Source of the DNA: a virus
Strand: one strand, 5' to 3'
DNA: 64,000 nt
IMG/VR virus record: IMGVR_UViG_3300023179_008562
Coordinates: 26,678-90,677 of that record
The position numbers were made by a program, and so were the translations under genes. A model generated the notes under the pieces. That model saw only the letters and a list, made by a program, of their open reading frames with translations, made no database searches and had not been told where the DNA came from. Below, in pieces: positions 21,816 through 63,753 of this stretch (position 1 is its first letter; every line of letters begins with the position of its first letter).

Positions 21816-22133
21816 ATGACCACCACCACTGAAAATATTATCAATCAGGTTAAACAAGCCACCGATTTTCAAATCAACAAACGTGCATTGCAGGAACGAA
21901 TTAAAATTGACCTGCACCTGGCCCACAATGGTGGGCTATTTTTAGTTGATCAAACTTTGCTGGCCTTTTTGTCCACCTGGCCCACAGATGAATTGTTTAT
22001 TGAGGATGTCTATGGCAATCCCATCTGTTGTGACCGATCAGAACTTTTGGCTCAGGCCCGGGAGTGTTATCAGACTGCAATGAATTCCTGGCATATTCAA
22101 CATGAAGAACTGCGACGTGTTAGAAAAATCTAA
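21816..22133 (+). CDS. Conserved phage hypothetical protein (105 aa)
   Basis: A small, mostly helical protein: MTTTTENIINQVKQATDFQI, a central FIEDVYGNPI motif and a C-terminal QARECYQTAMNSWHIQHEEL helix. It has no strong ribosome site. It opens the dense plus-strand gene array after the terminator and overlaps the next gene by 32 bases. I recall similar small proteins in T4-like phages but no function. Confidence 0.6.
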   Translation: MTTTTENIINQVKQATDFQINKRALQERIKIDLHLAHNGGLFLVDQTLLAFLSTWPTDELFIEDVYGNPICCDRSELLAQARECYQTAMNSWHIQHEELRRVRKI

Positions 22134-22878
22134 AGGCGTATTGATCTTTGCCAACAACACTGGTTATATAGATTACACCACAATTGCCGCCAGAGCCCAA
22201 ACCCTTGCAGAACATTATCTTAAACTGCCAGTGACCATTGTCACGGGTCAGGATTTTGCCAATAAAAGATATAATATTGACTCGGGGAATTTTGAAGCGT
22301 GGCACAATGGTGGCAGATATCTGGCCTATGAGTTGAGCCCCTACGATCAGACTATTCTGATAGACAGCGATTACTTTGTTTTTGATGACAATCTACTGAA
22401 AATTTTAGACGTGGTAAATGATTATCAGATCACAAAAACAAATAATTATGTCTGCAGTCAACACAGCAATCAGATGGGACAATATAGCCTGGACACACTC
22501 TGGGCAACCGTGATTGTGTTTAATAAAACTCCCAAGACCCGAATGTTATTTGATCTGGTGGGCGTAATTGAGCGCAATTATCAATATTACAGAGACCTCT
22601 ACAACATCGAGGCCAGAAATTTCAGAAATGATTATGCATTTACCATTGCCGACAATATCATAAATGGATATTGTCCCAATCAGGAAAACTATTTACCCTG
22701 GCCTATTGTCAGCGTGCCTGGGCCCATTGATAGTCTGGAATTAAAAGATTTCAAGTTTTACCTGAAAACCTCAGGTCAGGCCCTGGTATTACCAAAGCAA
22801 AGTATTCATCTGATGAGCAAGGCCTGGTTATTATCTGATTCCTGCAAGCAATTAATCGAGGCAGCGACTAATGCGTGA
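22102..22878 (+). CDS. Putative GT-A-type glycosyltransferase
   Basis: 258 residues from ATG 22,102; a GTG at 22,117 is an alternative start with GAAGAA in front. PYDQTILIDSDYFVFDDN (DSD at residues 88-90) looks like the metal-binding DxD of family-8-like glycosyltransferases, preceded by a Rossmann-like GVLIFANNTG start. The equivalent stretch in the next gene is PFKETIKLESDLLF, so the two are distant paralogues. No membrane segment, so a cytoplasmic enzyme acting on a soluble or membrane-surface acceptor. The acceptor is unknown; context suggests glycan or particle modification. Confidence 0.55.
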   Translation: MKNCDVLEKSKGVLIFANNTGYIDYTTIAARAQTLAEHYLKLPVTIVTGQDFANKRYNIDSGNFEAWHNGGRYLAYELSPYDQTILIDSDYFVFDDNLLKILDVVNDYQITKTNNYVCSQHSNQMGQYSLDTLWATVIVFNKTPKTRMLFDLVGVIERNYQYYRDLYNIEARNFRNDYAFTIADNIINGYCPNQENYLPWPIVSVPGPIDSLELKDFKFYLKTSGQALVLPKQSIHLMSKAWLLSDSCKQLIEAATNA

Positions 22879-23689
22879 ATTTAAAAGTCAATTTGGGTTC
22901 TTGACCATTGCACAAAATAACGACAACACTGATTATCTGGAGTTGGCGTATCAGCAAGCACTGAACGTCAAGGCAACACAAAAACAAAATCAATTTGCGG
23001 TACTGGTGGATGCTGACACTGCCAAATTCATCACTGATCAGCATCGTGAGATTTTTGATTATATTATTGAATTCTCGACTGACCATGCTAAAAATGAACA
23101 CTGGAAGATGAGCAATGAATGGCAGGTATTCCATCTGACCCCTTTCAAAGAAACCATTAAACTTGAAAGTGATTTGTTATTCACGCGGGACATCACACAT
23201 TGGTTAGACGGGCTAAGACTCAGAGACATCTGCTTTAGTTTGCACTGTAAAAATCTCCAGTCTGAGAATATTACATCGAGTCCCTACAGAAAGATTTTTA
23301 AAGAAAACGACTTGCCGGACATCTACACTGGCATGTATTATTTTAGATACAGTCAGACGAGTGCGGACTTTTTTAGAACGGTGCGTGATGTTTATGCTGG
23401 TTGGGATACAGTAAAAAATCATCTGGCGTTGATCAATGAACCGCCCACTACAGACCTTGCATTTGCAGTGGCGGTAAAAATCGTCGGGTCTGATATCTGC
23501 ACCATTCCTACCCAGGATTTTTTTAACTTTGTTCATCTAAAACCACAAATTCAGGGCTGGAATGAAACTCAAGCAGTGACTGATCATACAAATATTGAAT
23601 GGCAGAACGATATAGTAAGAATCAACAATCGCAATCAGTATTACCCAGTACATTATTACGAGAAGGGGTTTGTTCATGCTACCAGGTGA
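22871..23689 (+). CDS. Putative glycosyltransferase-like protein
   Basis: 272 residues, overlapping the previous gene by eight bases. LGFLTIAQNN-like start (FGFLTIAQNNDNTDYLELAY) and IKLESDLLFTRDITHWLDGL with an E/D-S-D motif at residues 99-101 parallel the preceding gene. The first DxD Asp is Glu, so metal binding may be altered. Later blocks (DIYTGMYYFRYS, TTDLAFAVAV) fit the acceptor side of family-8-like folds. Likely works with its neighbours. Confidence is limited because the similarity was judged by eye. Confidence 0.5.
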   Translation: MREFKSQFGFLTIAQNNDNTDYLELAYQQALNVKATQKQNQFAVLVDADTAKFITDQHREIFDYIIEFSTDHAKNEHWKMSNEWQVFHLTPFKETIKLESDLLFTRDITHWLDGLRLRDICFSLHCKNLQSENITSSPYRKIFKENDLPDIYTGMYYFRYSQTSADFFRTVRDVYAGWDTVKNHLALINEPPTTDLAFAVAVKIVGSDICTIPTQDFFNFVHLKPQIQGWNETQAVTDHTNIEWQNDIVRINNRNQYYPVHYYEKGFVHATR

Positions 23690-24032
23690 GTCTGAATTTT
23701 TGCAGGCATTGTCGTCGGCTATATCAGCGACACCGGCGGTTGAAGAATACCGTGCATATTATGACGCGGATGGCTGGGTCACAGGATTTTCGGGCAGTGG
23801 ATTTCCTGACAATGACAATTGGATAAACATCAGCAGAGAAATGTATGTGACACATGATTGGAGTTGCATGCGAGTAGTTGATGGAAAAATTTGTCGAGTC
23901 GAACCTGTATATTTTCATCATTTTGCTTTGACTCGCAGCAACAAGGGTGTTAAAGTAGTAAAAGATCATGCTGGAATTGTTGTAGAAGATGACTATTTAG
24001 AGACGGAATATTATGAGCGTAGAAATCGTTGA
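23676..24032 (+). CDS. Hypothetical protein (118 aa)
   Basis: The ATG at 23,676 is chosen because AGAAGGGG ends seven bases before it; a TTG six bases earlier is the only longer option. The protein is acidic and aromatic-rich, with DGWVTGFSGSGFPDNDNWI and an MRVVDGKICRVEP strand pair, and looks like a small beta domain. Overlaps both neighbours, so it is translated as part of the array. No family recognised. Confidence 0.6.
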   Translation: MLPGESEFLQALSSAISATPAVEEYRAYYDADGWVTGFSGSGFPDNDNWINISREMYVTHDWSCMRVVDGKICRVEPVYFHHFALTRSNKGVKVVKDHAGIVVEDDYLETEYYERRNR

Positions 24033-24909
24033 TGTTGCAGATTTAGATTGTATTTTTCTCACCTATGACGAGCCAAAAAAAGAAGAATTCTGGATTAAAA
24101 TTCAGAACATGGTGCCCTGGGCCCGACGTGTAGATGGAGTCAAAGGGTCGGATGCAGCACACAAAGCCGCTGCTGACGCCAGCGATACTGACCGCTTCGT
24201 GCTGATTGACGGTGACAATTTACCAGATCCAGAATTTTTTAATCTGCAGTTGAAGCTGGATACAACCAATCGGGACTGTGTGTTTCGCTGGAAAGCCAGA
24301 AACATCATTAATGGCCTGCAATATGGTAATGGTGGCATGAGCTGCTGGACCAAGGACTTTGTCCGCAACATGAAGACTCATGAAGCCAGTGACGGTTTAG
24401 CAGCCAACGATGTGGAATTCTGCTTCTACCCCAACTATTGGTCCATGAACGATTGTTACAGTGCAACCTATCCCAATGCCACACCTTTCCAGGCCTGGCG
24501 AGCTGGGTTCCGCGAGGGTGTCAAAATGTGTCTGGATCGTGGCGCCCGACCCAATATTGAACAATTCAAAGACCGTATTGTCAGTAGAAATTATGACAAT
24601 CTCTGCATCTGGCAGACGGTGGGGGCAGATGTGGAAAATGGCTTCTGGGCCATCTATGGTGCCAGACTGGGCACACAACTAACCATGCTGCAGGACTGGG
24701 ATTACCGGCAGGTACAGTGGTTTGATGCATTGTCTGAACTGTGGCAAAATTACAAAGATCACGAGCCTGATCATTGCACTGCTGTGGGCGATGAACTACG
24801 TCAGAGATTGGGGTTGAAAATTGTCGACATGGATCCCGACGCCAGTGCATTTTTCAAGCATCATTACCGGAGCAATTTTCAGAACAAAGGACCAATGATT
24901 CGTGAGTAA
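24013..24909 (+). CDS. Glycosyltransferase-like protein with IDGD motif
   Basis: 298 residues. RFVLIDGDNLPDPEFF carries a DGD at residues 66-68 typical of a GT-A metal site, followed by FRWKARNIINGLQYGNGGM. The same order of blocks (IDG, AAAELSDT, SRNPVNGLEYGHMG, WRTAFREVVKL) appears near the C-terminus of the 1,142-residue protein at 38,675, so the two share a domain. There it has lost the DxD, here it is intact. The C-terminal third is rich in Trp, Tyr and His. Substrate unknown. It lies immediately upstream of the first radical SAM gene and overlaps it by eight bases. Confidence 0.55.
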   Translation: MSVEIVDVADLDCIFLTYDEPKKEEFWIKIQNMVPWARRVDGVKGSDAAHKAAADASDTDRFVLIDGDNLPDPEFFNLQLKLDTTNRDCVFRWKARNIINGLQYGNGGMSCWTKDFVRNMKTHEASDGLAANDVEFCFYPNYWSMNDCYSATYPNATPFQAWRAGFREGVKMCLDRGARPNIEQFKDRIVSRNYDNLCIWQTVGADVENGFWAIYGARLGTQLTMLQDWDYRQVQWFDALSELWQNYKDHEPDHCTAVGDELRQRLGLKIVDMDPDASAFFKHHYRSNFQNKGPMIRE

Positions 24910-26293
24910 GAGCAAGTTCATGGGTACTGCTGAGGAAATGCGTGAAAAATTAGGTCATGCACTGTGCCTGGCCAAATGGCAGCAGGTTAGTTTACATTTG
25001 CCCACTGGGTTAACCAATAGTTGCTATCATCCTCCCTTGCATGAAATTGATGCTGCACCACTGACGTTTAATCCCGGTGCACTGCACAATACTGCACACA
25101 AGAAAGCGCAACGTAAGTTGATGCTAGAGCAGCAACGTCCGTCGGAGTGTGCCTATTGCTGGTCAGCTGAAGACAACGGCCAACTTAGTGACAGGCATTA
25201 TCGCAGTGGCGAACCTTGGGCAGCAGAACACTATGAAGAAATAGCCCATGGCTCTTGGGATCAGGATGCCACACCCAGTTATGTGGAAGTTAACTTTAGT
25301 CATGGCTGCAACCTAGCTTGTAGTTATTGTAGCCCACAGTTCAGTACCGAGTGGGGCAAAGAAATTGATCGCTGGGGGGCCTATCCCACCACCACACCGC
25401 ACAATGACCCCATACACTTTCAGGGACGCCGCAAACCCATTCCGGTTCGTGAAGAAAATCCCTATGTGGACGCCTTCTGGCGCTGGTGGCCAGAATTGTA
25501 TCCCCACCTCAAGCATTTTCGCATGACTGGTGGTGAGCCACTCATGGACAAAAACACTCACCGAGTGTTTGATTACATCCTGGCCCTGCCCAAAAGCGAT
25601 TTGCATGTGGACGTCACCAGCAATTTTAGTGTGGATGATGCACTGTTTGAAAAATACATGCACAAGGTTGAGCAACTGTGTCAGGGCACAAAAATTGAAC
25701 ACTTCATGCAGTATGTGAGTTTGGATTCGGGTATTAAAGAGCAGAGTGAGTACATACGCGGTGGGCTCAATCTAGACAAGTGTCTGCATAATACTGAAGA
25801 ATTTCTAACCAGAGTGCCCTATCGTAACAGTCTGACTTATATCATTACCATGAGCAACCTCAATATTCTAGGTCTGCGAAAGTTATTGGAAATCATTCTG
25901 GAACAACGTAAAAAACACAGTCTGACTTATCAGCGTGTCTGGTTTGATACTCCCCTGCTGCGACAGCCCACCTGGCAGAGTCTGCAAATTTTGCCAGCTA
26001 GTTATGTTAGAATATTAGAAGATGTTGCTGATTGGATGGAGTCCCATCAACTACCCGAAGGTGTTGATAGATTTGATGGATTCAAAGATTATGAAGTTCA
26101 ACGCATGCGCAGAAATATTGCCTGGATGAAAAATGGGCGGGATCTAGATCCTGAATATATACAACAACAACGTGCAGATTTTTATAGATTTTTTAACGAA
26201 TACGACAAGCGTCGAGGATTTAGTTTTATTAGCAGCTTCCCCACAATGAAGGAATTCTGGCAAGAGTGCCGATATTATGCCGAAAATACATAA
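24902..26293 (+). CDS. Twitch-domain radical SAM protein 1
   Basis: 463 residues from GTG 24,902; ATG 24,920 is an alternative. The radical SAM cluster motif CNLACSYC (C136, C140, C143; CX3CX2C) is followed by an MTGGEPL strand that contacts S-adenosylmethionine. The N-terminal 90 residues carry C22, C41 and CAYC (C83, C86), a set expected to bind an auxiliary iron-sulphur cluster as in twitch/SPASM proteins. A conserved HNTAHKKAQRKLM stretch is shared with the next gene, marking subclass A. Such enzymes generate a 5'-deoxyadenosyl radical; the substrate is unknown. Five homologues lie within 8 kb. Confidence 0.8.
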   Translation: MSKSKFMGTAEEMREKLGHALCLAKWQQVSLHLPTGLTNSCYHPPLHEIDAAPLTFNPGALHNTAHKKAQRKLMLEQQRPSECAYCWSAEDNGQLSDRHYRSGEPWAAEHYEEIAHGSWDQDATPSYVEVNFSHGCNLACSYCSPQFSTEWGKEIDRWGAYPTTTPHNDPIHFQGRRKPIPVREENPYVDAFWRWWPELYPHLKHFRMTGGEPLMDKNTHRVFDYILALPKSDLHVDVTSNFSVDDALFEKYMHKVEQLCQGTKIEHFMQYVSLDSGIKEQSEYIRGGLNLDKCLHNTEEFLTRVPYRNSLTYIITMSNLNILGLRKLLEIILEQRKKHSLTYQRVWFDTPLLRQPTWQSLQILPASYVRILEDVADWMESHQLPEGVDRFDGFKDYEVQRMRRNIAWMKNGRDLDPEYIQQQRADFYRFFNEYDKRRGFSFISSFPTMKEFWQECRYYAENT

Positions 26294-27629
26294 CGAAACA
26301 GATTTAGAATATAGACGTAGAGTAATCGACATCAAGTCTGAAAGTTTCTGTGCCGCCAAATGGTACAATGCCACTATCTGGCTGGGGTCGGGTATGACCA
26401 CTAGTTGTCATCACCCATTACCACATAAAGTTTCAGTCCAAGAGGTAGAGGCCAACCCCAGAGCTCTGCATAATACGCCACGCAAAAAGCAAGAACGTCA
26501 TCAGATGCAACAGGGAGAAAGACCTACCGGCTGTGAGTATTGCTGGAAAATTGAAGACATGGGCGTGGATGCCATAAGCGATAGAGTATATAAAACTGTA
26601 ATTTATAAAGACGAGGACCTGGATCTTGCATACAACACTGATTGGAATTCGGACATTAATCTTAAAACTTTGGAAATCGCATTTGATAGAACTTGCCAGT
26701 TGGCCTGCAGCTATTGTAATCCTGCTTTCAGCACTAGCTGGGTACGCGATATTCACCGAAATGGAGCATACATCAATCTGGTCAGCGATGGTCGTAACCA
26801 TTTCACTCATGAGCATGATAGTGCTCAACTTTATAAACTCGGTGAAACTAATCCGTATGTGGAAGCATTCTTCAAATGGTGGGAAACCGACCTCCACCAG
26901 ACCCTGACTGAACTCAGAATCACCGGCGGTGAACCGCTCATGAGCGGGTATACAAAACGTCTGTTGGATTGGTTCAAGAATAATCGTGGAGCTAGTACGA
27001 CCAGACTGGCCATTAATAGCAACCTGTGCTTTGACCAATCAGTGCTGGAAGAATTACTAGACAGTACCCAAGGCATCGAACTTGATCTGTATACCAGCAA
27101 TGAAAGTCTGGGCGCTCATGCAGAATACATTCGCGATGGGCTTGAATGGCAGCAGTGGACGGATAACATGTGGTTCTTGATGCGCAGCGGTCGGTTGCGT
27201 AGCTTGCATGTCATGTGCACAATTAATGCTCTTTGCCTGGAAAGTTTGCCAGAATTTCTAACCATGCTCATGGAATGGAAAAGTCAATGGGGTCGAAATA
27301 ACCCCAACTTTACATTAAACATTCTGCGTTTTCCCAGTTTTCAGAGTCCATTGGTGCTGCCTGATGATATTCGTATGAAACATCGACAGAGACTGGTGGA
27401 TTGGTTAAATAGATTTAATGATCATTGCATGCTTCATGAGCATGAAAAGAATCATGTGCAACGTCTGATTGATTATTTGGATATTGTTAAAACTCCACAC
27501 AGTGATGCGTTTGACTTGCCAGCATTACATAACGATTTCAAACAGTTTCATCAACAATATGATCAGCGTCGTGACAAGGATTTTAAAACAACATTCCCAC
27601 AACTGGCCGATTGGTACACAACACTATGA
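26277..27629 (+). CDS. Twitch-domain radical SAM protein 2
   Basis: 450 residues, overlapping the previous gene by 17 bases. Radical SAM motif CQLACSYC at C140, C144 and C147; ITGGEPLMSG follows. The N-terminal auxiliary-cluster cysteines are C25, C44 and CEYC (C86, C89), with the HNTPRKKQERHQM stretch that pairs it with the preceding gene (subclass A). Both share an NPYVEAF/NPYVDAF block ahead of the GGEP motif. It is clearly a duplicate of its neighbour, but divergent enough to suggest a different substrate or a heteromeric pair. Confidence 0.8.
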   Translation: MPKIHNETDLEYRRRVIDIKSESFCAAKWYNATIWLGSGMTTSCHHPLPHKVSVQEVEANPRALHNTPRKKQERHQMQQGERPTGCEYCWKIEDMGVDAISDRVYKTVIYKDEDLDLAYNTDWNSDINLKTLEIAFDRTCQLACSYCNPAFSTSWVRDIHRNGAYINLVSDGRNHFTHEHDSAQLYKLGETNPYVEAFFKWWETDLHQTLTELRITGGEPLMSGYTKRLLDWFKNNRGASTTRLAINSNLCFDQSVLEELLDSTQGIELDLYTSNESLGAHAEYIRDGLEWQQWTDNMWFLMRSGRLRSLHVMCTINALCLESLPEFLTMLMEWKSQWGRNNPNFTLNILRFPSFQSPLVLPDDIRMKHRQRLVDWLNRFNDHCMLHEHEKNHVQRLIDYLDIVKTPHSDAFDLPALHNDFKQFHQQYDQRRDKDFKTTFPQLADWYTTL

Positions 27630-28969
27630 GCGATTCAAACGATATTAAAAGTTTTTATAATAAAGGCTACAGTTACACGGCCAGAGCACCATATTTTGCT
27701 GATCTGGAAAGTTTAACAGAGAGACAAAAAGAATTGCTTTTGGAGAGCAAGACATTTTGTATGTTGCCCTGGGTGCACATGCATGCATTTCCTGATGGAA
27801 GAGTTTATCCTTGTTGTTTGGCAGACTACTGGCATCCCCTGGGGGATTTACGTAAAGACGACATGGTGACTGTGTGGAATCAAGATGCCTATAAACAGTT
27901 GCGTCAAAACATGCTGACTGAGAAGCCTAGTAAGGAATGCAACAAATGCTATGAACAAGAGAAAAGTGGATTTTTCAGCATGCGGTATGATGCCAACAGA
28001 AATTATGGTCATCATATTGCAGAAGTAGAACAGACTCTTGAAGATGGTGAGCATCCAGAATTCAATATTAGATACTGGGATGTGAGATTCAGTAATCTCT
28101 GCAATTTCCGTTGCAGAACCTGTGGGCCTATCTTTAGCAGTAATTGGTATAGTGATCACATTAAACTTTATAATAGAAACCCAGATGTTTTGGGTAGGGA
28201 AATGACCACAGTGGAGTACGCTGGCCGCCATGAGATGGATATCTGGGAGCAAATGCAACCACACATCCCGCATTTGGAACAAGTTTATTTTGCTGGTGGC
28301 GAACCTTTGATCATGAAAGAGCATTACCTGTTACTGGAAAAATTGATCGAGTTGGGCAAGACTGATGTCAGACTCATGTACAATACCAATTTTAGTGAGC
28401 TCAGATATAAAAATAAACATGTGTTTGAGTACTGGAAGCATTTTAAAACTGTTAACGTTGGTGCTAGTCTGGATGCCAGTGGTTCCCGCGCAGAAATCCT
28501 ACGTAAAGGCACTGATTGGCAGCAAACGGTGGAGAATCGCGAGCGTATGATGCGTGAAGTCCCACACGCTGATTTTTATATCAGCGCAACTGTTAGTGCC
28601 GCTAATGTGTTGCATGTATTGGATTTTCACCGTGAATGGACTGAGTTGGGCCTAATAAAAGCTAAAGATTTTAATGTTAACATTTGTCAGAGTCCTGAAT
28701 GGCACAGAATTGATGTATTACCAGAACAATTTAAACGAGAAGTGGTTGAGCCAGCATATCGTAAACATCTGGAATGGTTGCGCCCGCAGGACGATTTAAA
28801 ACGAGCTACAAATGGTTTTGAAAGTGCCATCAACTTTATGATGGCCAAGGACAACAGCCAACACTGGAATAAGTTTGTTGCGGAGACCGCCAAACTTGAT
28901 CGAGTCAGAAATGAAGATTTCTGGCAAGTATTTACTGAATTGAGCTCTTTACCACATGACATTACCTAA
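27626..28969 (+). CDS. Twitch-domain radical SAM protein 3
   Basis: The ATG at 27,626 overlaps the previous TGA (ATGA) and is preferred to an upstream TTG; 447 residues. Radical SAM motif CNFRCRTC (C149, C153, C156) and FAGGEPLIMKEHY. The N-terminal half has FCMLPWVHMHAFPDG, a CC pair (C63, C64) and CNKC (C105, C108): the PW/CC type, subclass B, shared with the proteins at 28,956 and 31,239. This cysteine layout is expected to hold an auxiliary cluster. Substrate unknown. Confidence 0.8.
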   Translation: MSDSNDIKSFYNKGYSYTARAPYFADLESLTERQKELLLESKTFCMLPWVHMHAFPDGRVYPCCLADYWHPLGDLRKDDMVTVWNQDAYKQLRQNMLTEKPSKECNKCYEQEKSGFFSMRYDANRNYGHHIAEVEQTLEDGEHPEFNIRYWDVRFSNLCNFRCRTCGPIFSSNWYSDHIKLYNRNPDVLGREMTTVEYAGRHEMDIWEQMQPHIPHLEQVYFAGGEPLIMKEHYLLLEKLIELGKTDVRLMYNTNFSELRYKNKHVFEYWKHFKTVNVGASLDASGSRAEILRKGTDWQQTVENRERMMREVPHADFYISATVSAANVLHVLDFHREWTELGLIKAKDFNVNICQSPEWHRIDVLPEQFKREVVEPAYRKHLEWLRPQDDLKRATNGFESAINFMMAKDNSQHWNKFVAETAKLDRVRNEDFWQVFTELSSLPHDIT

Positions 28970-30155
28970 TAGCATTTGCATATTGCCCTGGATTAGTGTT
29001 GAGACCAGCCCTGTTGGAACAGTGCGACCCTGTTGTTTAGCCAAAGATGAAATAACCAAACCATCGGGCGAAAAATACTTGCTTAAAGAGCATAATCTGG
29101 AAGAGATTTATCAGAGCAAGTACATGCAACGTCTCAGACAGGAATTTTTATCAGGAAATAAACCCCCCACTTGCGATCGTTGCTGGGAAGAGGAAGCTGC
29201 AGGTCGAACCAGCAAAAGAATCAACAGTCGAGTTCGTCTTAAGGAGTATTATGATCAAGTGGATTGGCACAACGTCAATCCTGACCAATTGTGGTTCATT
29301 GATCTTAAATTGGGCAATATTTGCAATCTCAAATGTCGTATTTGCGGCAGCTGGAGCAGCAGCAAGTGGGTCCAGGAAGAAATTGATTATGTGCCAGGTC
29401 TTGTCAACAGAAAAGAACATCTGGCTTATAAGTTTTTGCAGCAGGGCGCTTGGCCCAGAGAAAGTCCTGATTTCTGGGAAAATTTAAAAAGTCTGTTGCC
29501 CAACATCAAATATTTTGAGTTTACGGGCGGAGAACCTTTTCTAATTCAACAACATTTTGATTTGTTGGAGTATGCTGCAGAACATGGCCACAGTCAGCAT
29601 ATTGATATTCATTACAATACCAATGGCACTGTGTTTCCCGACGCTGCTGAATTATGGAACAAGTTCAATCGTGTGGAAATTGCTTTCAGCATAGACAACG
29701 TTGGCGAGAGATTCGAGCTGGAACGTTATGGTGCTGACTGGTCAGAAGTACAGGAAAATTTAAATAAATTTTCGGCCATGCGCAGCAAGAAAATCACCAC
29801 GCAACTCTGCACCACCATGAATGCTCAGAATGTCTATTATTTGCCAGAAATTTGTGATTGGGCCAGTACTCAAGATTTTGACTACATATATTTCAATATG
29901 CTGCATGATCCCTGGCACATGAATATTGGTCGTATGACTCCTGCAGCACAACAGTTGGTGATTGAACGATTAACCAATCACAAGTTTCACACCAAATATC
30001 GTGCAGAGATTGAACGTATTATTCAGTTTATTCGTAATGGGTCTGGCAGTGATGGTCAGAAATTTCTAACAACAATGAAATTGGCCGACCAATACAGAAA
30101 ACAAAGTTTTGCTGAAACGCATCCTGAAATTGCCAAGGCCATGGGGTATGATTGA
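28956..30155 (+). CDS. Twitch-domain radical SAM protein 4
   Basis: 399 residues, shorter at the N-terminus than its neighbours and overlapping the previous gene by 14 bases. Radical SAM motif CNLKCRIC (C123, C127, C130) with FTGGEPFLIQQHF. Auxiliary cysteines C8, C26-C27 and CDRC (C73, C76), with ICILPWISVETSP, place it in subclass B. The C-terminal 60 residues are charged and helical. Cytosolic, oxygen-sensitive chemistry is expected. Confidence 0.8.
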   Translation: MTLPNSICILPWISVETSPVGTVRPCCLAKDEITKPSGEKYLLKEHNLEEIYQSKYMQRLRQEFLSGNKPPTCDRCWEEEAAGRTSKRINSRVRLKEYYDQVDWHNVNPDQLWFIDLKLGNICNLKCRICGSWSSSKWVQEEIDYVPGLVNRKEHLAYKFLQQGAWPRESPDFWENLKSLLPNIKYFEFTGGEPFLIQQHFDLLEYAAEHGHSQHIDIHYNTNGTVFPDAAELWNKFNRVEIAFSIDNVGERFELERYGADWSEVQENLNKFSAMRSKKITTQLCTTMNAQNVYYLPEICDWASTQDFDYIYFNMLHDPWHMNIGRMTPAAQQLVIERLTNHKFHTKYRAEIERIIQFIRNGSGSDGQKFLTTMKLADQYRKQSFAETHPEIAKAMGYD

Positions 30156-35107: not shown

Positions 35108-36545
35108 CGCAGGTGCTACAGTAGTTGATGGTAGCACCGGTGACATCCTATTTGCGGCACACAGTGAAAGATACAGCAAGCAAAAAAACGATGCCGACCT
35201 CTGTCAGGGCATAGCAGAAGCTGCGTTGGCACATGGGCCCATTGGCACAATTGCCTATTATGAAACTCCCTGGCTGAAGCAACTGCGACAGCTATACAGC
35301 GGTCAGGGCATCGAATGGGATAAACTAAATACCAAAAAAATCATAACAGACCAGTTGGGATTCAAAATCTCAGTCCCTGTCAGGACTTATCAGCATCATC
35401 TGAGTCATGCCGCTGCGGGATTTCAGACCAGCCCATTCGATCGGGCCACCGTGGTGGTGATTGATGCCATCGGTGAATGGGACACCATAACCATCTGGGC
35501 CGCAGAATACGTCAATGGTCAGGCCCAATATAACAAACTCTGGGGTCAGAAATATCCACACAGTCTGGGGCTGTTTTATTCAGCCATGACTCAACGTGCA
35601 GGGTTGCGGCCATTGGATGAAGAATACATTCTCATGGGTATGGCAGCTTATGGCACTGCTGATCCTAGCATGCTAGCGGATTTCGTTCAGAATTTGGACA
35701 CTCTGGAGTTTCGACGGAATCTCCATGCGGGTGCTGATGATTATCGTCCAGACATGAGTGATTTTGATATCGCGGCCAGTGCCCAGCAGACTCTGGAAAC
35801 TTGTCTGGCCAGTGTGATGACACGAGCCAGGGCATTCGGCTGGAGCACGAATTTGGTCTATATGGGTGGAGTCGCTTTAAATTGTTCAGCAAACGCCAGA
35901 CTGGGACAATATTTCGACGACATCTGGATCATGCCCAACCCTGGTGATTGCGGCAGCAGTCTGGGGGCCGCGGCTCTGGCTTATAGTGGTCGAATAAACT
36001 GGCAACATCCCTATCTGGGCACAGAAATTCCAGGACCATATCCTCTGGCTGGTCTGATGAATGAACTACTGACTCGTCAGATTGTGGGGGTGGCCAGTGG
36101 TCGAGCAGAGTTTGGTCCCAGGGCCCTGGGCAACCGTAGTCTGTTAGCAGATCCACGGGGTCCTGAAATTAAAGACCGAGTTAACGAAATCAAACGCAGA
36201 CAAAAGTTCAGACCATTTGCCCCGGTGATTTTACAAGAGCACGCCAACGACTATTTTGAAATGCCAGTGGGCTTTGCCACCAGCCCATATATGCAGGTCA
36301 TAGCCAAATGTCGGCATCCTGAACAATTTCCTGCTATAATACATGTGGACGGCACCAGTCGAGTGCAGACCGTGTCTGAAAATTGTGGTAGCGGCATCAG
36401 ACAATTGTTGGAATCCTGGTATGCACAGACTGGCTGTCCCATGTTGTTGAACACCAGTCTGAACATACGCGGAGAACCCATGGTCAACAATCGTGCAGAT
36501 GCCGACAGGTTTGAACAGTTGTATAATGTAAAGGTCATGTCATGA
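35073..36545 (+). CDS. NodU/TobZ-family carbamoyltransferase
   Basis: 490 residues, near full family length. MNILGISAGFHDAGATVVDG opens the Kae1-like domain, HHLSHA (residues 108-113) is the metal-binding pair with YMGGVALNC and GDCGSSLGAA downstream; GRAEFGPRALGNRSLLADPR near residue 350 starts the YrdC-like part conserved in the family. These enzymes make carbamoyladenylate from carbamoyl phosphate and ATP and move the carbamoyl group to a hydroxyl, as in antibiotic sugars or Nod factors; some phage members carbamoylate hydroxymethylated DNA bases. The genes around it favour a glycan or natural-product-like acceptor, but DNA cannot be excluded. Confidence 0.88.
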   Translation: MNILGISAGFHDAGATVVDGSTGDILFAAHSERYSKQKNDADLCQGIAEAALAHGPIGTIAYYETPWLKQLRQLYSGQGIEWDKLNTKKIITDQLGFKISVPVRTYQHHLSHAAAGFQTSPFDRATVVVIDAIGEWDTITIWAAEYVNGQAQYNKLWGQKYPHSLGLFYSAMTQRAGLRPLDEEYILMGMAAYGTADPSMLADFVQNLDTLEFRRNLHAGADDYRPDMSDFDIAASAQQTLETCLASVMTRARAFGWSTNLVYMGGVALNCSANARLGQYFDDIWIMPNPGDCGSSLGAAALAYSGRINWQHPYLGTEIPGPYPLAGLMNELLTRQIVGVASGRAEFGPRALGNRSLLADPRGPEIKDRVNEIKRRQKFRPFAPVILQEHANDYFEMPVGFATSPYMQVIAKCRHPEQFPAIIHVDGTSRVQTVSENCGSGIRQLLESWYAQTGCPMLLNTSLNIRGEPMVNNRADADRFEQLYNVKVMS

Positions 36546-38183: not shown

Positions 38184-38682
38184 ACACATACAGGCACATA
38201 TGCGAGCTGCGCATATCTATGCTGAATGTAGTACAGCCAGAAGGCTTAAAGTTGGCGCATTGGTAGTTAAAGATGATAGAATTATCAGTATTGGCTACAA
38301 TGGCATGCCGGCCGGCTGGGATAACAATTGCGAATTCTGGGAGAAAAAAATAGAATGGGACGACCCAAGTCAGGTTTACAAATTGCTAGGAGAGGGCTGG
38401 GAATGGCACGAAGACGAGGATGGTGGCAGTTATCTCAGGCGGTTAAAAACCAGACCCGAAGTACTCCACGCTGAATCAAATGCAGTTTCAAAACTGGCTC
38501 GTTCCAGCGAAAGCGGTGCTGGCGCCAGCATGTTTATCACTCATAGCCCCTGTATTGACTGTGCCAAATTAATTTATCAGAGTGGCGTTGTTGCAGTCTA
38601 CTATACAGTGGATTATCGATGCTCATCTGGCATCGAATTTCTAAAACGCTGCGGAATCAAAGTAGAAAAAATCCATGTTTGA
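38173..38682 (+). CDS. dCMP deaminase
   Basis: ATG 38,173 is preceded by GGAAG at good spacing; 169 residues. Zinc and catalytic motifs HAE (99-101) and PCIDC (C127, C130) with VGALVVKDDRIISIGYNGMP upstream are those of deoxycytidylate deaminases. It turns dCMP into dUMP, the substrate of the thymidylate synthase encoded at 45,365. A roughly 45-residue insertion between the NGMP and HAE blocks (residues 46-95) fits phage-type enzymes with extra zinc or regulatory sites. Confidence 0.88.
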   Translation: MKNKHIQAHMRAAHIYAECSTARRLKVGALVVKDDRIISIGYNGMPAGWDNNCEFWEKKIEWDDPSQVYKLLGEGWEWHEDEDGGSYLRRLKTRPEVLHAESNAVSKLARSSESGAGASMFITHSPCIDCAKLIYQSGVVAVYYTVDYRCSSGIEFLKRCGIKVEKIHV

Positions 38683-41600
38683 TGTATTTTATCAGGGACC
38701 CAAGCCCGGCCTTTTTCCATTTGAGCAACCGGCTCGAGATTTAGACGCTGCTGCCCGACTAAGTCGGACCAAATTCTTTTGGTTTATTGATGGCAACAAC
38801 GATTATAGCAAATTTGATTTTGATCAACGTCCGGTGCCCTGGCAGAGTGAGTTTGTTCATGTCTGGCCCAGTCAGTGGCAGACATGTGGTGGTACCTACC
38901 TTGCCAATAAACACACTGTAAAAAATAGACATTGGCATTTCAGAGATAACGCAGTTGTGCCAAGACAGGAATCATTAGAAAACTGGCATGTACCTGAGAA
39001 CATTATCAGTAATACGGTAGACTACACCTGGCATCCCAACCCCCTGGATCCACCTTACATCTACTGTTTTCCTAGTCAACATCAGAGCGCCAGTGGTGTA
39101 ATATATACGGTACCTGGTGCAACCGAAATTAAATTATCAGATTCATTCGTGGTCAAATCATTACCCAGAACAGATAACTGGCATATATTTGATAATATAG
39201 ATAGGGATTCTTTTGATTTTACCTGGCACCCAAATCCACTGGATCCACCTTATACATACCGATTTGGTAATCAGTGGAATCCACCTGAATACAAGTCCAG
39301 TCTGGAATATGTGGTTCCAGGAGCCACAGAAACAAAGTATATGACTGAGATCAGGGCACGTAAATTGCCAACCCCTGATGAATTTACCATCAACATTCCT
39401 GTGAGTGATTTTGATTTCAGCTGGGAGCCTAACCCATTTGACCCCCCATACATATACGTGTTTGGTAATCAGTGGAATCCTGGTGTGTTGGAACCCACAG
39501 TTGTTTATACTGTGCCAGGGGCCACTGAAGTCAAATATGTGGATGACATGGTGGCCACGGTGGCACCAGATGCCGCGAAATTTCTAATACTGGACAACAT
39601 TGAATACTTTGACTACAGTTGGAGACCCAACCCCAAGGATCCGGCCTACATCTATGTGTTTGGTAACCAATGGATGTCGCCTGAACTCAGACCAGCCCTG
39701 CAATACCAGGTCTCAGGTGCCACTGAAATAAAATATATGATGGAGCCCAGAGCTCGACGTGTTGGTGAACCTGAAAAATTCATCACACATTATGCCTGTG
39801 ACTTTGATTATAGCTGGGAACCCGACCCTGGCAGTCCGCCATATAACTATATCTTTGGTAATCAGCACTGGCCCGCAGAAGTCATGCCCACTGTGGAATA
39901 TTCCATGATCGGCGCCACTGACACCAAATACATGGAAATGCCACAGGCAAAACTGCTGGCCACCGACACGCACTGGCAGGCACAGACTGATCTGCCATTC
40001 GAGTTTGATCGTAGCTGGTGTCCGGATCCCGGTGACCCTCCCTACATTTATGTTTTTGGCAATCAATGGTATCCTGCCACAGAAATGCCCACCATGGAGT
40101 ATCAGGTACCTGGTGCACAGGAACGCAAGTTTATGGATCATCCACTGGCTCGTATGTTGCCTGTGATGGATCGATGGCACGTGCCTGAAGAAGTGGATCA
40201 GACACAAATTGACTTTGCTTGGGTTCCGCACCCCAAAGACTTGCCCTATGTCTATCATTTTGGTACAGAGTTTCAGCAAAGTGTTGGGCTGACCTACACG
40301 GTGCCTGGTGCCACCGATTTAAAGTTTCAGGGAGAAATTCCACTGATTCAGACGGTTGCCCAGGATCAGAAAACGTCTCTACAGGTGCTGGACATCTTCT
40401 TTATTGATAAAAACAATGCCAGTGCCAAGACGCGCTATGCGCGCCTACAAGAGCGTTATCCTGACATACACAGGGTCAGATATGCCAACAGCATCATGGA
40501 CACTATTCGACGCTGTCTGACCAGGAGTAAAACCGGCAAATTCTGGGTTATCAGCAGCGAAAACGTCTACGACGATTTCGATTTCACCTGGCATGCCCAG
40601 CCCTGGCAAAGTTATATGACTCATGTGTTTGGGTCACAGTGGCAGAAATGGTCAGATACTTTCTTAATCAATCGCTACGAATTCGAACGACATACTCAGT
40701 GGGCTGGTAGCATTGAACAATTCCCCAATCTGAATTTTGTTAAAGATCAGCCAGTCATGATACCCGATGACCTGCATGACATCTACTGGGTCAGTCACGG
40801 CAACGCCACTGATCAGTATCAGCAACTCAGTCAGAAATACCCTGATATTCGGAGCACCAGATTCGTTGACAGTTATCTGGAAACTCTGCGTCGTATCATG
40901 GCCACAGTGACCACTGAGTATGTCTGGGTCATCAGCAGTCTGTGCGACTACACCAGATTTGATTTCAGTTGGCAACCTGAACCCTGGCAACGTGAAATGA
41001 TGCACGTATTCCCCAGTGGTAAACAAATTCGTGGAGACACATTTTATATACACGTGCCGAGTTTTCAGAAACAAATGCAACAACTGGTGTTGCTGGACTG
41101 GTTTGACACGGTGAACTACTGTTCAGAACAGACAGTTCCCAGATTACCTATACCGGTGGTTCGTTATACCACTGACTCGGCAGTTGATGTGCTTAAAAAT
41201 CATAATTTTGAAAACCCCTACACCTGGTTCGTGCCCAATCATGAGTTCGTTCAAGATCATGCACTAGTATACGAACCTGCAATTTGGTATGCCAAAGACA
41301 AGAAAATTCACACTTTTTCGCGTGGAAATAGTGTGATTTTGGCTCCCAGAGACGTGAAAATTCACATTAATACACAAGCCTATGATTATCCCTATATCGA
41401 CAAGCAACGAACCATAAAAGAACCCGATCTGGATATCATCTACATCAGCAATGGTGAACCCGATGCAGAACGCTGGTATGAGCATTTGTGTAACATTGCA
41501 GGCAGACCCATCAAACGTGTTCAGAACATCGATGGGCGTGCCAATGCCTATCGAGCCGCAGCTGAACTCAGCGACACTGCCTGGTTCTTCACAGTGTTTG

Positions 41601-42103
41601 CTAAACTGGAGGTGGTCGAGAATTTTGACTGGAGTTGGCAACCCGACCGGTTACAAGAAGCCAAACACTATATCTTCCACAGCCGGAATCCAGTCAACGG
41701 TCTGGAATACGGTCATATGGGCATCATTGCCTACAATCGACAACTGGTGTTGGAGACAGATGCTCCTGGCCTGGACTTTACCCTGAGTAAACCTCACGCC
41801 GTGGTGCCGGTGTTGAGTGCGGTGGCACATTACAACACCACTCCCGAACTGACCTGGCGCACTGCATTCAGAGAAGTTGTTAAACTCAGGGATCATGTGG
41901 AAAAAACCGACAGCATCGAAAGTCGCTATAGACTGAACCTCTGGTTGTCTGAGGCCCAGGGCCAGCACGCCGAATGGAGCGTGCAGGGCGCAGCAGATGC
42001 TGTCAAGTACTATGACACAGTGGCCGGCGACTACCAGCAGCTACTCAAGACTTTTGAGTGGGCCTGGCTCAGGAATTTCTGGCTGAGTCAACACTCAGTC
42101 TGA
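38675..42103 (+). CDS. 1,142-residue repeat protein related to a GT-like domain
   Basis: Three parts. Residues 1-115 contain FWFIDGNNDYSKFDF and HVWPSQWQ. Residues 115-560 are seven tandem copies of a 65-68-residue unit, FDFxWxPxPxxPPYIYxFGNQWxP, then VPGATExKYM. The rest has three more diverged units, each preceded by a strand and helix ending (V/I)ISS..YDD-like, and a final domain (residues about 910-1,080: YISNGEPDAERWYEHL to WRTAFREVVKL) matching the protein at 24,013. DxD motifs are degenerate, so it is probably a binding scaffold rather than an enzyme. No signal peptide. It ends the plus-strand array and overlaps the convergent aminotransferase by 35 bp. Confidence 0.65.
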   Translation: MFDVFYQGPKPGLFPFEQPARDLDAAARLSRTKFFWFIDGNNDYSKFDFDQRPVPWQSEFVHVWPSQWQTCGGTYLANKHTVKNRHWHFRDNAVVPRQESLENWHVPENIISNTVDYTWHPNPLDPPYIYCFPSQHQSASGVIYTVPGATEIKLSDSFVVKSLPRTDNWHIFDNIDRDSFDFTWHPNPLDPPYTYRFGNQWNPPEYKSSLEYVVPGATETKYMTEIRARKLPTPDEFTINIPVSDFDFSWEPNPFDPPYIYVFGNQWNPGVLEPTVVYTVPGATEVKYVDDMVATVAPDAAKFLILDNIEYFDYSWRPNPKDPAYIYVFGNQWMSPELRPALQYQVSGATEIKYMMEPRARRVGEPEKFITHYACDFDYSWEPDPGSPPYNYIFGNQHWPAEVMPTVEYSMIGATDTKYMEMPQAKLLATDTHWQAQTDLPFEFDRSWCPDPGDPPYIYVFGNQWYPATEMPTMEYQVPGAQERKFMDHPLARMLPVMDRWHVPEEVDQTQIDFAWVPHPKDLPYVYHFGTEFQQSVGLTYTVPGATDLKFQGEIPLIQTVAQDQKTSLQVLDIFFIDKNNASAKTRYARLQERYPDIHRVRYANSIMDTIRRCLTRSKTGKFWVISSENVYDDFDFTWHAQPWQSYMTHVFGSQWQKWSDTFLINRYEFERHTQWAGSIEQFPNLNFVKDQPVMIPDDLHDIYWVSHGNATDQYQQLSQKYPDIRSTRFVDSYLETLRRIMATVTTEYVWVISSLCDYTRFDFSWQPEPWQREMMHVFPSGKQIRGDTFYIHVPSFQKQMQQLVLLDWFDTVNYCSEQTVPRLPIPVVRYTTDSAVDVLKNHNFENPYTWFVPNHEFVQDHALVYEPAIWYAKDKKIHTFSRGNSVILAPRDVKIHINTQAYDYPYIDKQRTIKEPDLDIIYISNGEPDAERWYEHLCNIAGRPIKRVQNIDGRANAYRAAAELSDTAWFFTVFAKLEVVENFDWSWQPDRLQEAKHYIFHSRNPVNGLEYGHMGIIAYNRQLVLETDAPGLDFTLSKPHAVVPVLSAVAHYNTTPELTWRTAFREVVKLRDHVEKTDSIESRYRLNLWLSEAQGQHAEWSVQGAADAVKYYDTVAGDYQQLLKTFEWAWLRNFWLSQHSV
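39018..40335 (+). repeat. Seven tandem 65-68-residue protein repeats
   Basis: Units begin near 39,018, 39,212, 39,410, 39,608, 39,800, 40,003 and 40,208. Most share W-x-P-(N/D)-P, PPYIYVFGNQW and the PGATE(T/V/I)KYM closing motif. Units 2-6 keep FGNQ; units 1 and 7 are more diverged (FPSQ, FGTE), as expected for the edges of an array grown by internal duplication. Confidence 0.8.
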
Positions 42104-43193
42104 CCTGATCCACCACTGTCTCCACTTCCACATCAGTGAGCTCAGGGTAGATGGGCAGGCTCAGACAGGTGCGTCCAAATTCTTCAGCACCTTCTGTAGC
42201 CAACAGTCCCCGATCATAGGCAAAGCCGATGCTGTTGAGATTGAGTGGTCGACTGTAGTGAACCCTGGTCTCAATGCCGGCATTTTCCAGAGACTTTCTG
42301 ATTCTGGTACGATGTGCGGAATGTATGACAAATTTGTGCCAGGCTGGCTCAACTCTGGCATCTATGGGCGGCACAGTCACATATCCTGTGAGTTGATCTG
42401 AATAATATTCAGCAATTTCACGACGTCGGGCCTGCCAGCCATCAAAATATTGCAATTTAACCAGCAGCTGAGCTGCGTCGGCCTCGCTGATTTTGCTGTT
42501 GGTACCTGACACAGTGTGATCATGATATTTGCCATTGTCTCGGAGACTGAGACAGTTCTCAAATATATCAACATCATCAGTCAGTACCATGCCACCACTG
42601 CCATAAGCTGGTAAATTTTTTGTGGGATCAAAACTCAGACAACTGACATCGCCCAGTTTACCACTGGGTATTCCCGAATAACTGGCACCAAAACTCTGTG
42701 CAGCATCTTCAATTATATGAACACCGTTGTCAGCAAAAATCTCCTGATAGGTCCGGAGTTTATCGTAGTCCACGATGTTGCCAAACAAGTTCACATACAT
42801 GATGGCATTGATTTCATTATAGTTGACCATGATTCGACTGAGGTCAATCAACCCAGTTATGGGGTTGACATCACAAAATACTGGCTCTAGTCCTGCTTCC
42901 ATGACTGAATTCAATGTGGCTACAAAACTTTGGGTGGGGATCAGTACACGGTCAGATCTGATTTGATCCACCGATCTCAGAGCAAATATCAGTGCCTGAG
43001 TGCAACTATTGACAGCCACTGCAAACCGTCGCTGGGTTCTGATGGCCATGGCTTGTTCAAATTTTCGTGTGTATTCGCCATCCAGAACTTGTCCGGTTCG
43101 ATAGACTTCATCGGTGACGGCCAATATTTCGTCACGCAGTAGTGCGTATTGTCTGTCAAGACCAAAGAAGGGGATTTTCTTTGTACCACTCAT
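42069..43193 (-). CDS. DegT/DnrJ/EryC1/StrS-family sugar aminotransferase
   Basis: ATG 43,193 (374 aa) is preferred to longer in-frame starts because MSGTKKIPFFGLDRQY begins the conserved family fold. PLP features: NSCTQALIFAL near residue 62, IIEDAAQSFGA with Asp163 contacting the pyridine, and the Schiff-base lysine K192 in SFDPTKNLPAYGSGG. These enzymes aminate keto-sugars on nucleotide carriers. It overlaps the epimerase stop by 38 bases, and the two would make an amino or branched sugar for the glycosyltransferases on the other strand. Product identity cannot be told. Confidence 0.88.
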   Translation of the reverse strand: MSGTKKIPFFGLDRQYALLRDEILAVTDEVYRTGQVLDGEYTRKFEQAMAIRTQRRFAVAVNSCTQALIFALRSVDQIRSDRVLIPTQSFVATLNSVMEAGLEPVFCDVNPITGLIDLSRIMVNYNEINAIMYVNLFGNIVDYDKLRTYQEIFADNGVHIIEDAAQSFGASYSGIPSGKLGDVSCLSFDPTKNLPAYGSGGMVLTDDVDIFENCLSLRDNGKYHDHTVSGTNSKISEADAAQLLVKLQYFDGWQARRREIAEYYSDQLTGYVTVPPIDARVEPAWHKFVIHSAHRTRIRKSLENAGIETRVHYSRPLNLNSIGFAYDRGLLATEGAEEFGRTCLSLPIYPELTDVEVETVVDQVRLSVDSARNS

Positions 43194-44118
43194 AATATCT
43201 GGTAAAACCTTCTGTAATATCAACTTTGGGATCGTACCCCAGATCGGTTCGGGCCTGGGTGATATCCAGATGTCCTCGGCGTGGGAACCTGGCATCACGA
43301 TCTGCCACTACAATTTCACCCTGTCCTGCGATGTCTACAATCAATTTTGCTGCATCAAGCAATGTGGATTCCTGATCAGCCGATCTGGTGATGTTATAGA
43401 TTTTACCAGAACTCTGATCGCTGACAGCCGCCAGTGCTATGCCCTGTGCGGTGTCAGATACATGAGTGAAATCCAGGACCTCACTGGCTCCGTGAACGGT
43501 GATGGGCTCGCCACGCAGCGCACGAGTTATAAACTTACTTATGACTCGATCTTCCACGTCCCATTCTCCGTAAACTGCACTGGGTCTGACGATGGTGGAG
43601 TCGAAAAAACCCAGGCGATGGTAATCCTGTACCAGCCACTCGCCTGCAAGTTTCAATATACCGTAACTGCCCTGTGGTTGACAGGGCGCCAGTTCATGGG
43701 TTCCTGAAGCGAAGTCACCGTAGACCATGGAACTACTGATATACACAAACTTTTTTACGTTGTGGTGTCGGGCACTTTCCAACAGATTGGTCAGCCCAGC
43801 GATCATGACCTCACTGGCTATTCGGGGATTCTTTTCTGCAGCTTTCTGTCTGGGAAAACTGGCCAGGTGTATGACAACGTCTGGTTTAAAATCCGCCATC
43901 AGCTTCTCAATGGCCGCACAGTCTCGAATATCTATATTACAGTGTCTAGCGGCGACCTGGCTCAGTCGATGTTTAGACAGGTATGTCAATTCTCGGGCAT
44001 CTAAAATGCCATAGTCAGTCAGATTATCAACGATCACGCATTGGTGTTGTTGAGATTCCAGTATCCGGACAACATTGTGACCAATGAAACCGGCTCCACC
44101 GGTCACCAGAAACTTCAT
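43156..44118 (-). CDS. NAD-dependent nucleotide-sugar epimerase/dehydratase
   Basis: 320 residues, an extended short-chain dehydrogenase. GGAGFIG (7-13) binds NAD; IHLASFPRQKA, SSSMVYGD and SYGILKLAGE supply the Ser, Tyr and Lys of the catalytic set; RPSAVYGEWD and a substrate domain follow. UDP-glucose 4-epimerase and GDP- or dTDP-sugar dehydratases share this layout. Coupled to the aminotransferase downstream and to a small basic protein upstream (stop and ATG overlap). Reaction not decidable. Confidence 0.88.
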   Translation of the reverse strand: MKFLVTGGAGFIGHNVVRILESQQHQCVIVDNLTDYGILDARELTYLSKHRLSQVAARHCNIDIRDCAAIEKLMADFKPDVVIHLASFPRQKAAEKNPRIASEVMIAGLTNLLESARHHNVKKFVYISSSMVYGDFASGTHELAPCQPQGSYGILKLAGEWLVQDYHRLGFFDSTIVRPSAVYGEWDVEDRVISKFITRALRGEPITVHGASEVLDFTHVSDTAQGIALAAVSDQSSGKIYNITRSADQESTLLDAAKLIVDIAGQGEIVVADRDARFPRRGHLDITQARTDLGYDPKVDITEGFTRYYEWYKENPLLWS

Positions 44119-63727: not shown

Positions 63728-63753
63728 TTGATTACGATCACTTCGCCTTAGAT

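What the first reader, a model, noticed from the sequence alone, without database searches (positions are those of the whole stretch)
21816..44118. A phage-borne biosynthetic cluster built on five radical SAM proteins
Seen: five twitch radical SAM genes, four glycosyltransferase-like genes, three SGNH-like genes, a carbamoyltransferase, an APS-kinase-like protein, and a sugar aminotransferase plus epimerase on the opposite strand. Established: these families act on sugars, lipids or peptides. Inference: together they could make a modified glycan, a particle or DNA decoration, or a small molecule. No RiPP precursor peptide was recognised.
Basis: partly seen in the sequence, partly recalled or inferred. 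Interest (0 to 1): 0.85.

Follow-up and report, generated by a model that had tools for sequence, protein, structure and literature searches.

The report
Phage cassette of five radical-SAM enzymes
A large freshwater-type virus of bacteria carries, right behind its tail-fibre genes, a fixed-order set of sugar-type enzymes that includes five different radical-chemistry enzymes also found together in Bdellovibrio-like bacteria; it probably builds an unusual sugar tag, most likely on the virus's own fibres.

Summary
Five radical-SAM proteins (24902-32561) all exceed the N_Twi_rSAM cut-off and keep their cysteines. They sit in a near-gapless operon with glycosyltransferase-like, SGNH-like and carbamoyltransferase genes directly behind the tail fibre of a T4-related phage. 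The 90.7-kb record looks like a fragment of a jumbo-phage genome.

Among IMG/VR loci anchored on a non-rSAM cassette gene, 30 of 44 (gtA) and 40 of 44 (h_32533) hold all five rSAM families, in nearly invariant order. The convergent aminotransferase and SDR pair follows in 41 of 45. The rSAMs, gtA and the carbamoyltransferase are conserved about as well as the portal, whereas fibre and accessory genes vary.

Two additions: the five rSAMs are separate clades, each with Bdellovibrionota relatives, where they cluster mostly without glycosyltransferases; and the cassette encodes almost no membrane proteins (7 of 1037 ORFs; 215 of 979 in bacterial control loci).

Best reading: cytosolic synthesis and tailoring of an amino-sugar glycan, probably for virion fibres; host-surface remodelling is the main rival. 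Glycan islands and rSAM genes behind tail fibres are known, so this is a new variant of a known kind. Target and chemistry are inferred, not shown.

The parts
19292..20770 (+). tail-fibre-like protein with Peptidase_G2 autocleavage domain (fib); anchor upstream of the cassette
   Evidence: PF11962 and PHROG tail-fibre matches; present in 44/44 full gtA-anchored loci
20784..21725 (+). h_20784, conserved 313-aa protein of unknown function next to the fibre; candidate acceptor or fibre partner
   Evidence: 44/44 gtA-anchored loci; 41% mean pairwise identity
21816..22133 (+). h_21816, conserved 105-aa protein, unknown
   Evidence: 44/44 gtA-anchored loci
22102..22878 (+). gt1, glycosyltransferase-like (LSPYxxT..DxDY motif)
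   Evidence: motif D.DY in 40/41 members; no Pfam or PDB hit
22871..23689 (+). gt2, glycosyltransferase-like, weakly GT8/glycogenin-like
   Evidence: profile vs glycogenin E 0.007; motif TPFKETIKLExDLL
23670..24032 (+). h_23670, small variable protein, unknown
   Evidence: 44/44 gtA-anchored loci
24013..24909 (+). gtA, GT-A-like protein (LIDGDN)
   Evidence: AF2 pLDDT 81; weak fold matches include many GT-A and nucleotidyltransferase structures, top 2p73; IDGD in 41/44
24902..26293 (+). rS1, twitch radical SAM
   Evidence: NF033640 287 bits; CxxxCxxC in 50/51; own clade
26277..27629 (+). rS2, twitch radical SAM
   Evidence: NF033640 290 bits; 60/60 CxxxCxxC; own clade
27611..28969 (+). rS3, twitch radical SAM
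   Evidence: NF033640 400 bits; 71/71 CxxxCxxC; own clade
28956..30155 (+). rS4, twitch radical SAM
   Evidence: NF033640 354 bits; 78/78 CxxxCxxC; own clade
30109..31242 (+). gtB, variable glycosyltransferase-like protein with TEK..P...PF motif
   Evidence: TEK in 43/48; accessory, 24/44 and 28/44 loci; no PDB hit
31239..32561 (+). rS5, twitch radical SAM, most conserved
   Evidence: NF033640 289 bits; 47/47 CxxxCxxC; 73% mean identity
32533..33684 (+). h_32533, conserved phage-only protein; confident model without a PDB fold match
   Evidence: AF2 pLDDT 86, pTM 0.84; no PDB match below E 0.3; viral matches E down to 1.6e-22, incl. Atu_ph07
33662..34483 (+). sgnh1, SGNH-like hydrolase or acyltransferase (DUF6071-related)
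   Evidence: PF19547 1.8e-5; motif in 25/28
34556..35107 (+). sgnh2, SGNH-like (DUF6071)
   Evidence: PF19547 30.6 bits, cut-off 27
35073..36545 (+). O-carbamoyltransferase (NodU/TobZ type)
   Evidence: PF16861 and PF02543; HHxSHA in 39/42; 64% mean identity
36542..37276 (+). sgnh3, SGNH-like, interrupted by in-frame TAG at 36911-36913
   Evidence: uninterrupted ORFs of this family in L015 and L026
37276..37707 (+). small P-loop kinase-like protein (APS-kinase-like N-terminus)
   Evidence: PF01583 1.7e-11; below apsK cut-off; P-loop 27/27
38675..42103 (+). rep, 1142-aa repeat protein: tandem units of about 66 aa and a C-terminal gtA-like domain without IDGD
   Evidence: in 44/44 h_32533-anchored loci; DGD in only 2/27
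42069..43298 (-). DegT/DnrJ-type sugar aminotransferase
   Evidence: PF01041 279 bits; 41/45 loci
43156..44118 (-). SDR nucleotide-sugar epimerase/4,6-dehydratase-like
   Evidence: PF01370 171 bits; best NCBIfam match TIGR01181, below cut-off; 41/45 loci

Best explanation
A cytosolic glycan-synthesis-and-tailoring cassette placed directly behind, and probably read with, the tail-fibre genes. The SDR and DegT pair makes an NDP-linked (4-)amino-deoxy sugar. The five twitch radical-SAM enzymes act in series on sugar carbons (epimerisation, dehydrogenation or deamination, as in BtrN, NeoN or DesII). The glycosyltransferase-like proteins gt1, gt2 and gtA assemble the sugars on an acceptor. Carbamoyltransferase, SGNH proteins, gtB and the small kinase are accessory decorators that vary between phages. 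The acceptor is most likely a virion protein, the fibre or its neighbour h_20784. Shown: gene content, fixed order, motif conservation, purifying selection, shared ancestry of the rSAM set with Bdellovibrionota, and lack of membrane proteins. Inferred: sugar as the substrate (about 0.7), virion as the target (about 0.4), and the order of steps. The confidence given is for the whole statement.
For: Fixed order fib-h_20784-h_21816-gt1-gt2-h_23670-gtA-rS1-rS2-rS3-rS4-rS5-h_32533-[variable]-rep, with DegT and SDR convergent behind it. Genes overlap or abut from 21816 to 42103 except one 72-bp gap. NDP-aminosugar enzyme pair. Carbamoyltransferase. GT-like motifs and weak GT-A/GT8 similarity. The rSAM twitch region is closest to the BtrN twitch domain among solved structures (E 3e-5); BtrN oxidises an aminocyclitol (own knowledge). 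Some bacterial relatives lie near sugar genes: glmU-rS5-glmS in L166, GT2 and nucleotidyltransferase genes near the L162 and L168 clusters; a GT2-rSAM fusion in L131. TPR-rSAM and Sel1-rSAM fusions suggest protein partners. Only 7 of 1037 cassette ORFs have a strong hydrophobic segment, against 215 of 979 in bacterial loci. Core enzymes (64-73% mean identity) are about as constant as the portal (69-72% to this phage in most relatives), while fibre, h_20784, gt1 and gtB vary (34-47%); this fits a constant chemistry better than a host-specific surface glycan.
Against: No GT-like protein passes a Pfam cut-off, and the gtA fold match is weak (prob 0.60). rSAM clusters in several Bdellovibrionota lack glycosyltransferases next to them (L163, L164, L169), so the rSAM set may act on something other than a glycan. 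GT families were not enriched near bacterial rS3 relatives (2 of 102 near, 2 of 102 far). Most SPASM/twitch rSAM enzymes of known function modify peptides (own knowledge). No acceptor has been identified. glmU-rS5-glmS was seen in one of eight regions examined.
Confidence: 0.42

Rival explanations
1. Host-surface remodelling. The cassette modifies host lipopolysaccharide or capsule precursors in the cytosol during infection, to exclude competing phages or to free progeny from receptors, as proposed for cyanophage and pelagimyophage glycan islands.
For: Pelagimyophage host-recognition clusters hold tail fibres, glycosyltransferases and radical-SAM cassettes, and O-chain modification was proposed (PMC7029224). 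Jumbo cyanophage LPS clusters with epimerases, GTs and carbamoyltransferases were read the same way (PMC7824862).
Against: No flippase, polymerase, initiating transferase or membrane GT was seen; only 7 of 1037 cassette ORFs have a strong hydrophobic segment. Core enzymes are unusually constant. The operon continues the structural module rather than an early region (position only, expression not measured).
Confidence: 0.25
2. Protein-modifying relay. The rSAM enzymes modify amino-acid side chains or backbone of a virion protein (cross-links, epimers, thioethers), and the GT-like proteins add sugars to the same protein.
For: TPR-rSAM and Sel1-rSAM fusions in bacteria. rSAM sets without adjacent GTs in Bdellovibrionota. 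SPASM/twitch enzymes are often peptide modifiers (own knowledge). Fibre-adjacent position.
Against: No dedicated small precursor gene: the operon has one 72-bp gap. NDP-aminosugar enzymes travel with it. The closest solved twitch domain is BtrN, not a peptide maturase.
Confidence: 0.18
3. Small-molecule or nucleotide route: a secreted carbamoylated amino-sugar compound, or hypermodified phage DNA using the nearby dCMP deaminase, thymidylate synthase and DHFR.
For: Carbamoyltransferase and DegT/SDR resemble antibiotic-sugar pathways; ThyA, DHFR and dCMP deaminase lie next door.
Against: No exporter or membrane protein. ThyA, DHFR and dCMP deaminase match ordinary nucleotide-metabolism families; ThyA and DHFR are found downstream in only part of the loci (25 and 18).
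Confidence: 0.1
4. No joint function: an island of unrelated moron genes that stay together only because the phages are related.
For: Core conservation partly tracks phage kinship (portal 69-72% in the same records); accessory genes come and go.
Against: Order and motifs persist at 50-70% protein identity. Marine relatives binned in MAGs keep the set with rS4 and rS5 swapped (L072, L073). The rSAM set also clusters in Bdellovibrionota. dN/dS is 0.01-0.16 in nearly all close pairs.
Confidence: 0.05

Closest known systems
Pelagimyophage host recognition cluster (PMC7029224)
   Same: T4-like phages with glycosyltransferases and radical-SAM cassettes next to tail fibres.
   Different: There the island is described as hypervariable and non-syntenic; here the core order is nearly invariant and holds five distinct rSAM families plus h_32533 and rep.
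Jumbo cyanophage LPS / carbamoyltransferase clusters (PMC7824862)
   Same: GTs, epimerase/dehydratase and carbamoyltransferase in jumbo phages.
   Different: No radical SAM described there; those clusters include sugar kinases, a halogenase and 2OG oxygenases not found here.
Aeromonas phage 332-Vera (PMC12390700)
   Same: Eight radical-SAM genes inside the tail-fibre/structural gene cluster of a cultured jumbo phage.
   Different: Belongs to Chimallinviridae, not a T4-like phage; its genes could not be compared because the record is not held.
Moraphages (PMC12619734)
   Same: Large aquatic, mostly freshwater phages with T4-like genes and four core glycosyltransferase orthogroups; plausibly the same lineage.
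   Different: Identity not tested because the genomes are not held; the word 'radical' does not occur in the paper's main text.
N_Twi_rSAM clusters of Bdellovibrionota chromosomes (this work)
   Same: rS1-rS5 relatives clustered, e.g. L084/L168 with all five.
   Different: Mostly no adjacent GT-like genes, and none of the phage-type gtA or rep; h_32533 only as one marginal hit.

Membership tests
N_Twi_rSAM (NF033640) | score over curated cut-off | tested here: met
   all five, 287-400 bits against 170
N_Twi_rSAM (NF033640) | CxxxCxxC cluster motif and N-terminal twitch cysteines | tested here: met
N_Twi_rSAM (NF033640) | two [4Fe-4S] clusters and SAM cleavage | not testable with these tools
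   needs biochemistry
O-carbamoyltransferase (NodU/TobZ) | N- and C-terminal Pfam domains and HHxxHA motif | tested here: met
Adenylylsulfate kinase | full-length match over apsK cut-off | tested here: not met
   37.7 of 138.7 bits, N-terminal part only
Self-contained O-antigen/capsule locus or phage seroconversion (Gtr) cassette | membrane flippase, polymerase, initiating transferase or membrane GT | tested here: not met
   no strong hydrophobic segment in the window cassette; 7 of 1037 ORFs in relatives; crude hydropathy test
RiPP cluster | small precursor-peptide gene in the operon | tested here: not met
   no room between genes, one 72-bp gap; h_21816 and h_23670 are the only small conserved ORFs. 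A larger protein substrate is not excluded
Glycosyltransferase (gt1, gt2, gtA, gtB, rep) | curated family score, GT fold, DxD-type site | tested here: inconclusive
   motifs kept in gt1, gt2, gtA and gtB, lost in rep; fold and profile support weak
Pelagimyophage host recognition cluster | lies between VrlC and neck gene gp14 | not tested
   VrlC and gp14 were not identified in this record

The most novel reading that the evidence does not exclude
The five twitch rSAM families form a portable multi-enzyme relay exchanged between a widespread jumbo-phage lineage and Bdellovibrionota. In the phage it performs radical chemistry on a virion glycan or fibre protein, which would be a kind of virion modification not described before as far as the searched library shows, and the shared ancestry points to Bdellovibrionota as hosts.
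Probability: 0.25. Interest if true: 0.85.

Novelty: new variant of a known kind. Interest (0 to 1): 0.66.

Why it matters
A five-enzyme radical-SAM set conserved about as well as the portal protein, in phages found by the hundred in IMG/VR, implies a product that matters for infection. Radical chemistry on a virion glycan or fibre would be a new kind of phage decoration and a source of new carbohydrate or protein chemistry. The shared rSAM set gives a testable lead to the hosts of an uncultivated jumbo-phage lineage, and gives five linked families to study in Bdellovibrionota, where single genomes carry up to 33 such genes.

Tried and rejected
First genome scan with the rS5 protein alone found nothing; the rS3 alignment found 78 loci. 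An early reading that DegT and SDR are not part of the unit (1 of 57) was wrong: most of those loci ended before the pair; with longer flanks it is 41 of 45. T4 late promoter TATAAATA: no match. Promoter and terminator scans were close to the shuffled level. TAG recoding was considered because of the split sgnh3 and rejected, since TAG ends 3 of 55 ORFs and no other clear gene of the cassette is interrupted. Neighbour-family enrichment around bacterial rS3 relatives was weak: other rSAM 7 against 2, GDSL 5 against at most 2, GT2 2 against 2. glmU-rS5-glmS was seen in one of eight regions examined; three further genomes with an rS5 relative were not examined. PDB profile searches with gt1, gtB, h_32533 and sgnh1 gave no hit. 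Phage 332-Vera could not be fetched.
Full report
SETTING. The window is bases 26678-90677 of a 90,677-base virus record. Its portal (PHROG 213) is about 49-50% identical to PA5oct-type jumbo phages and 47-51% to Atu_ph07 and Phosso. Viral records with 69-72% identical portals reach 289 and 354 kb. The record is therefore read as a fragment of a T4-related jumbo-phage genome (inference).

OBSERVATION. All five rSAM genes match N_Twi_rSAM over its cut-off and carry one CxxxCxxC each; across viral relatives the motif is kept in 50/51, 60/60, 71/71, 78/78 and 47/47. Carbamoyltransferase, DegT and SDR are firm. The GT-like and SGNH-like calls rest on motifs and weak profile or fold matches. The 'APS kinase' is only a small P-loop protein. 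sgnh3 is interrupted by one in-frame TAG; longer uninterrupted ORFs of that family exist in L015 and L026. From 21816 to 42103 the genes overlap or abut except for one 72-bp gap.

CO-OCCURRENCE. A viral-contig scan with rS3 gave 57 loci, nearly all syntenic. Among full-length loci: gtA-anchored (44), fib, h_20784, h_21816, gt1, gt2, h_23670 and rS1 in 44, rS2 and rS3 in 43, all five rSAM families in 30 (limited by the 10-kb flank); h_32533-anchored (44), rS2, rS3, rS5 and rep in 44, all five in 40. Carbamoyltransferase (37), gtB (28) and the kinase (25) are accessory in the second set. DegT and SDR follow rep in 41 of 45 loci with enough sequence. The kept 80 loci per scan are the closest relatives, so these rates describe this lineage, not all phages with a gtA or h_32533 relative.

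CONSTRAINT. dN/dS to the close relatives in L010 and L011 is 0.01-0.16 in nearly all measurable pairs, the exception being the fibre against L011 at 0.27. Mean pairwise identity over up to 17 phages is 66-73% for the rSAMs, 67% for gtA and 64% for the carbamoyltransferase, against 47% for the fibre, 41% for h_20784, 45% for gt1 and 34% for gtB.

THE rSAM SET. In a 144-row tree (quick method, SH-aLRT support, several long branches flagged) rS1, rS2, rS4 and rS5 of the phages each group with Bdellovibrionota sequences at 99-100% for the joint clade; for rS3 the phage clade is at 100% and its wider grouping with Bdellovibrionota and Elusimicrobia sequences at 98%. Bacteriovoracaceae UBA6144 carries all five in one cluster of eight, next to chromosomal housekeeping genes such as Obg and RsfS. 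Of 291 Bdellovibrionota genomes, 12 have an rS5 relative at E below 1e-60; several have rS2-rS5-rS4-type clusters. Only one of eight regions examined shows glmU-rS5-glmS. Fusions include TPR-rSAM and Sel1-rSAM in Elusimicrobia-type MAGs, GT2-rSAM, and rS1-rS3 in a phage. Direction of transfer and host are not shown.

MEMBRANE TEST. No window cassette protein has a 19-residue hydropathy mean above 1.6. In relatives 7 of 1037 cassette ORFs reach 1.9, against 215 of 979 ORFs in the bacterial loci. This is a crude hydropathy test, not a topology predictor, but it argues against a self-contained O-antigen or Gtr-type system.

UNKNOWNS. h_32533 gives a confident model (pLDDT 86, pTM 0.84) with no PDB fold match and ten phage matches below E 0.001: a phage-specific family, possibly a new fold. 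rep consists of units of about 66 aa and a gtA-like end whose IDGD is lost.

PRIOR ART. Pelagimyophage host-recognition clusters with GTs and rSAM cassettes (PMC7029224), jumbo cyanophage glycan and carbamoyltransferase clusters (PMC7824862), eight rSAM genes in the structural cluster of Aeromonas phage 332-Vera (PMC12390700) and the GT-rich moraphages (PMC12619734) mean that glycan islands and rSAM genes behind tail fibres are known. The fixed five-family rSAM set, its Bdellovibrionota relatives and the order with h_32533 and rep were not found in the papers read; most subscription papers and all bioRxiv preprints are outside the library.

VERDICT. Real, conserved and under selection; most likely a glycan cassette for the virion, with the target unproven. 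New variant of a known kind.

Noticed in passing
L008:8895-9770 (-), L008:10397-11521 (-), window 62879-63787 (-): Three further radical-SAM-like genes elsewhere in the record; those in L008 lie beside the SbcC-like gene. They match the general radical-SAM family rather than standing in the cassette.
   Followed up: partly
window 2099-15268: A single ORF of 4389 aa upstream of the fibre genes, not identified.
   Followed up: no
window 36911-36913: In-frame TAG inside the third SGNH-like gene; TAG ends only 3 of 55 ORFs in the window. Read as a broken accessory gene, or a sequencing error.
   Followed up: yes
window 37861-38682: The listed ORF of the dCMP deaminase begins inside the DUF2452-like gene in another frame; the deaminase match covers only residues 110-248, so the true start probably lies near the end of that gene.
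   Followed up: partly
L088, L117, L077 (Elusimicrobia-type MAGs); genome G059: N_Twi_rSAM genes are fused to long TPR arrays, and one genome has 42 matches, many in ORFs of 600-1200 aa.
   Followed up: partly
L072-L076, L114, L146, L149: Contigs binned as Rickettsiales, Pelagibacter, Verrucomicrobia and others; most carry the phage fibre-GT-rSAM order (L076 is a short rSAM-only piece), so they are probably misbinned phage contigs.
   Followed up: partly
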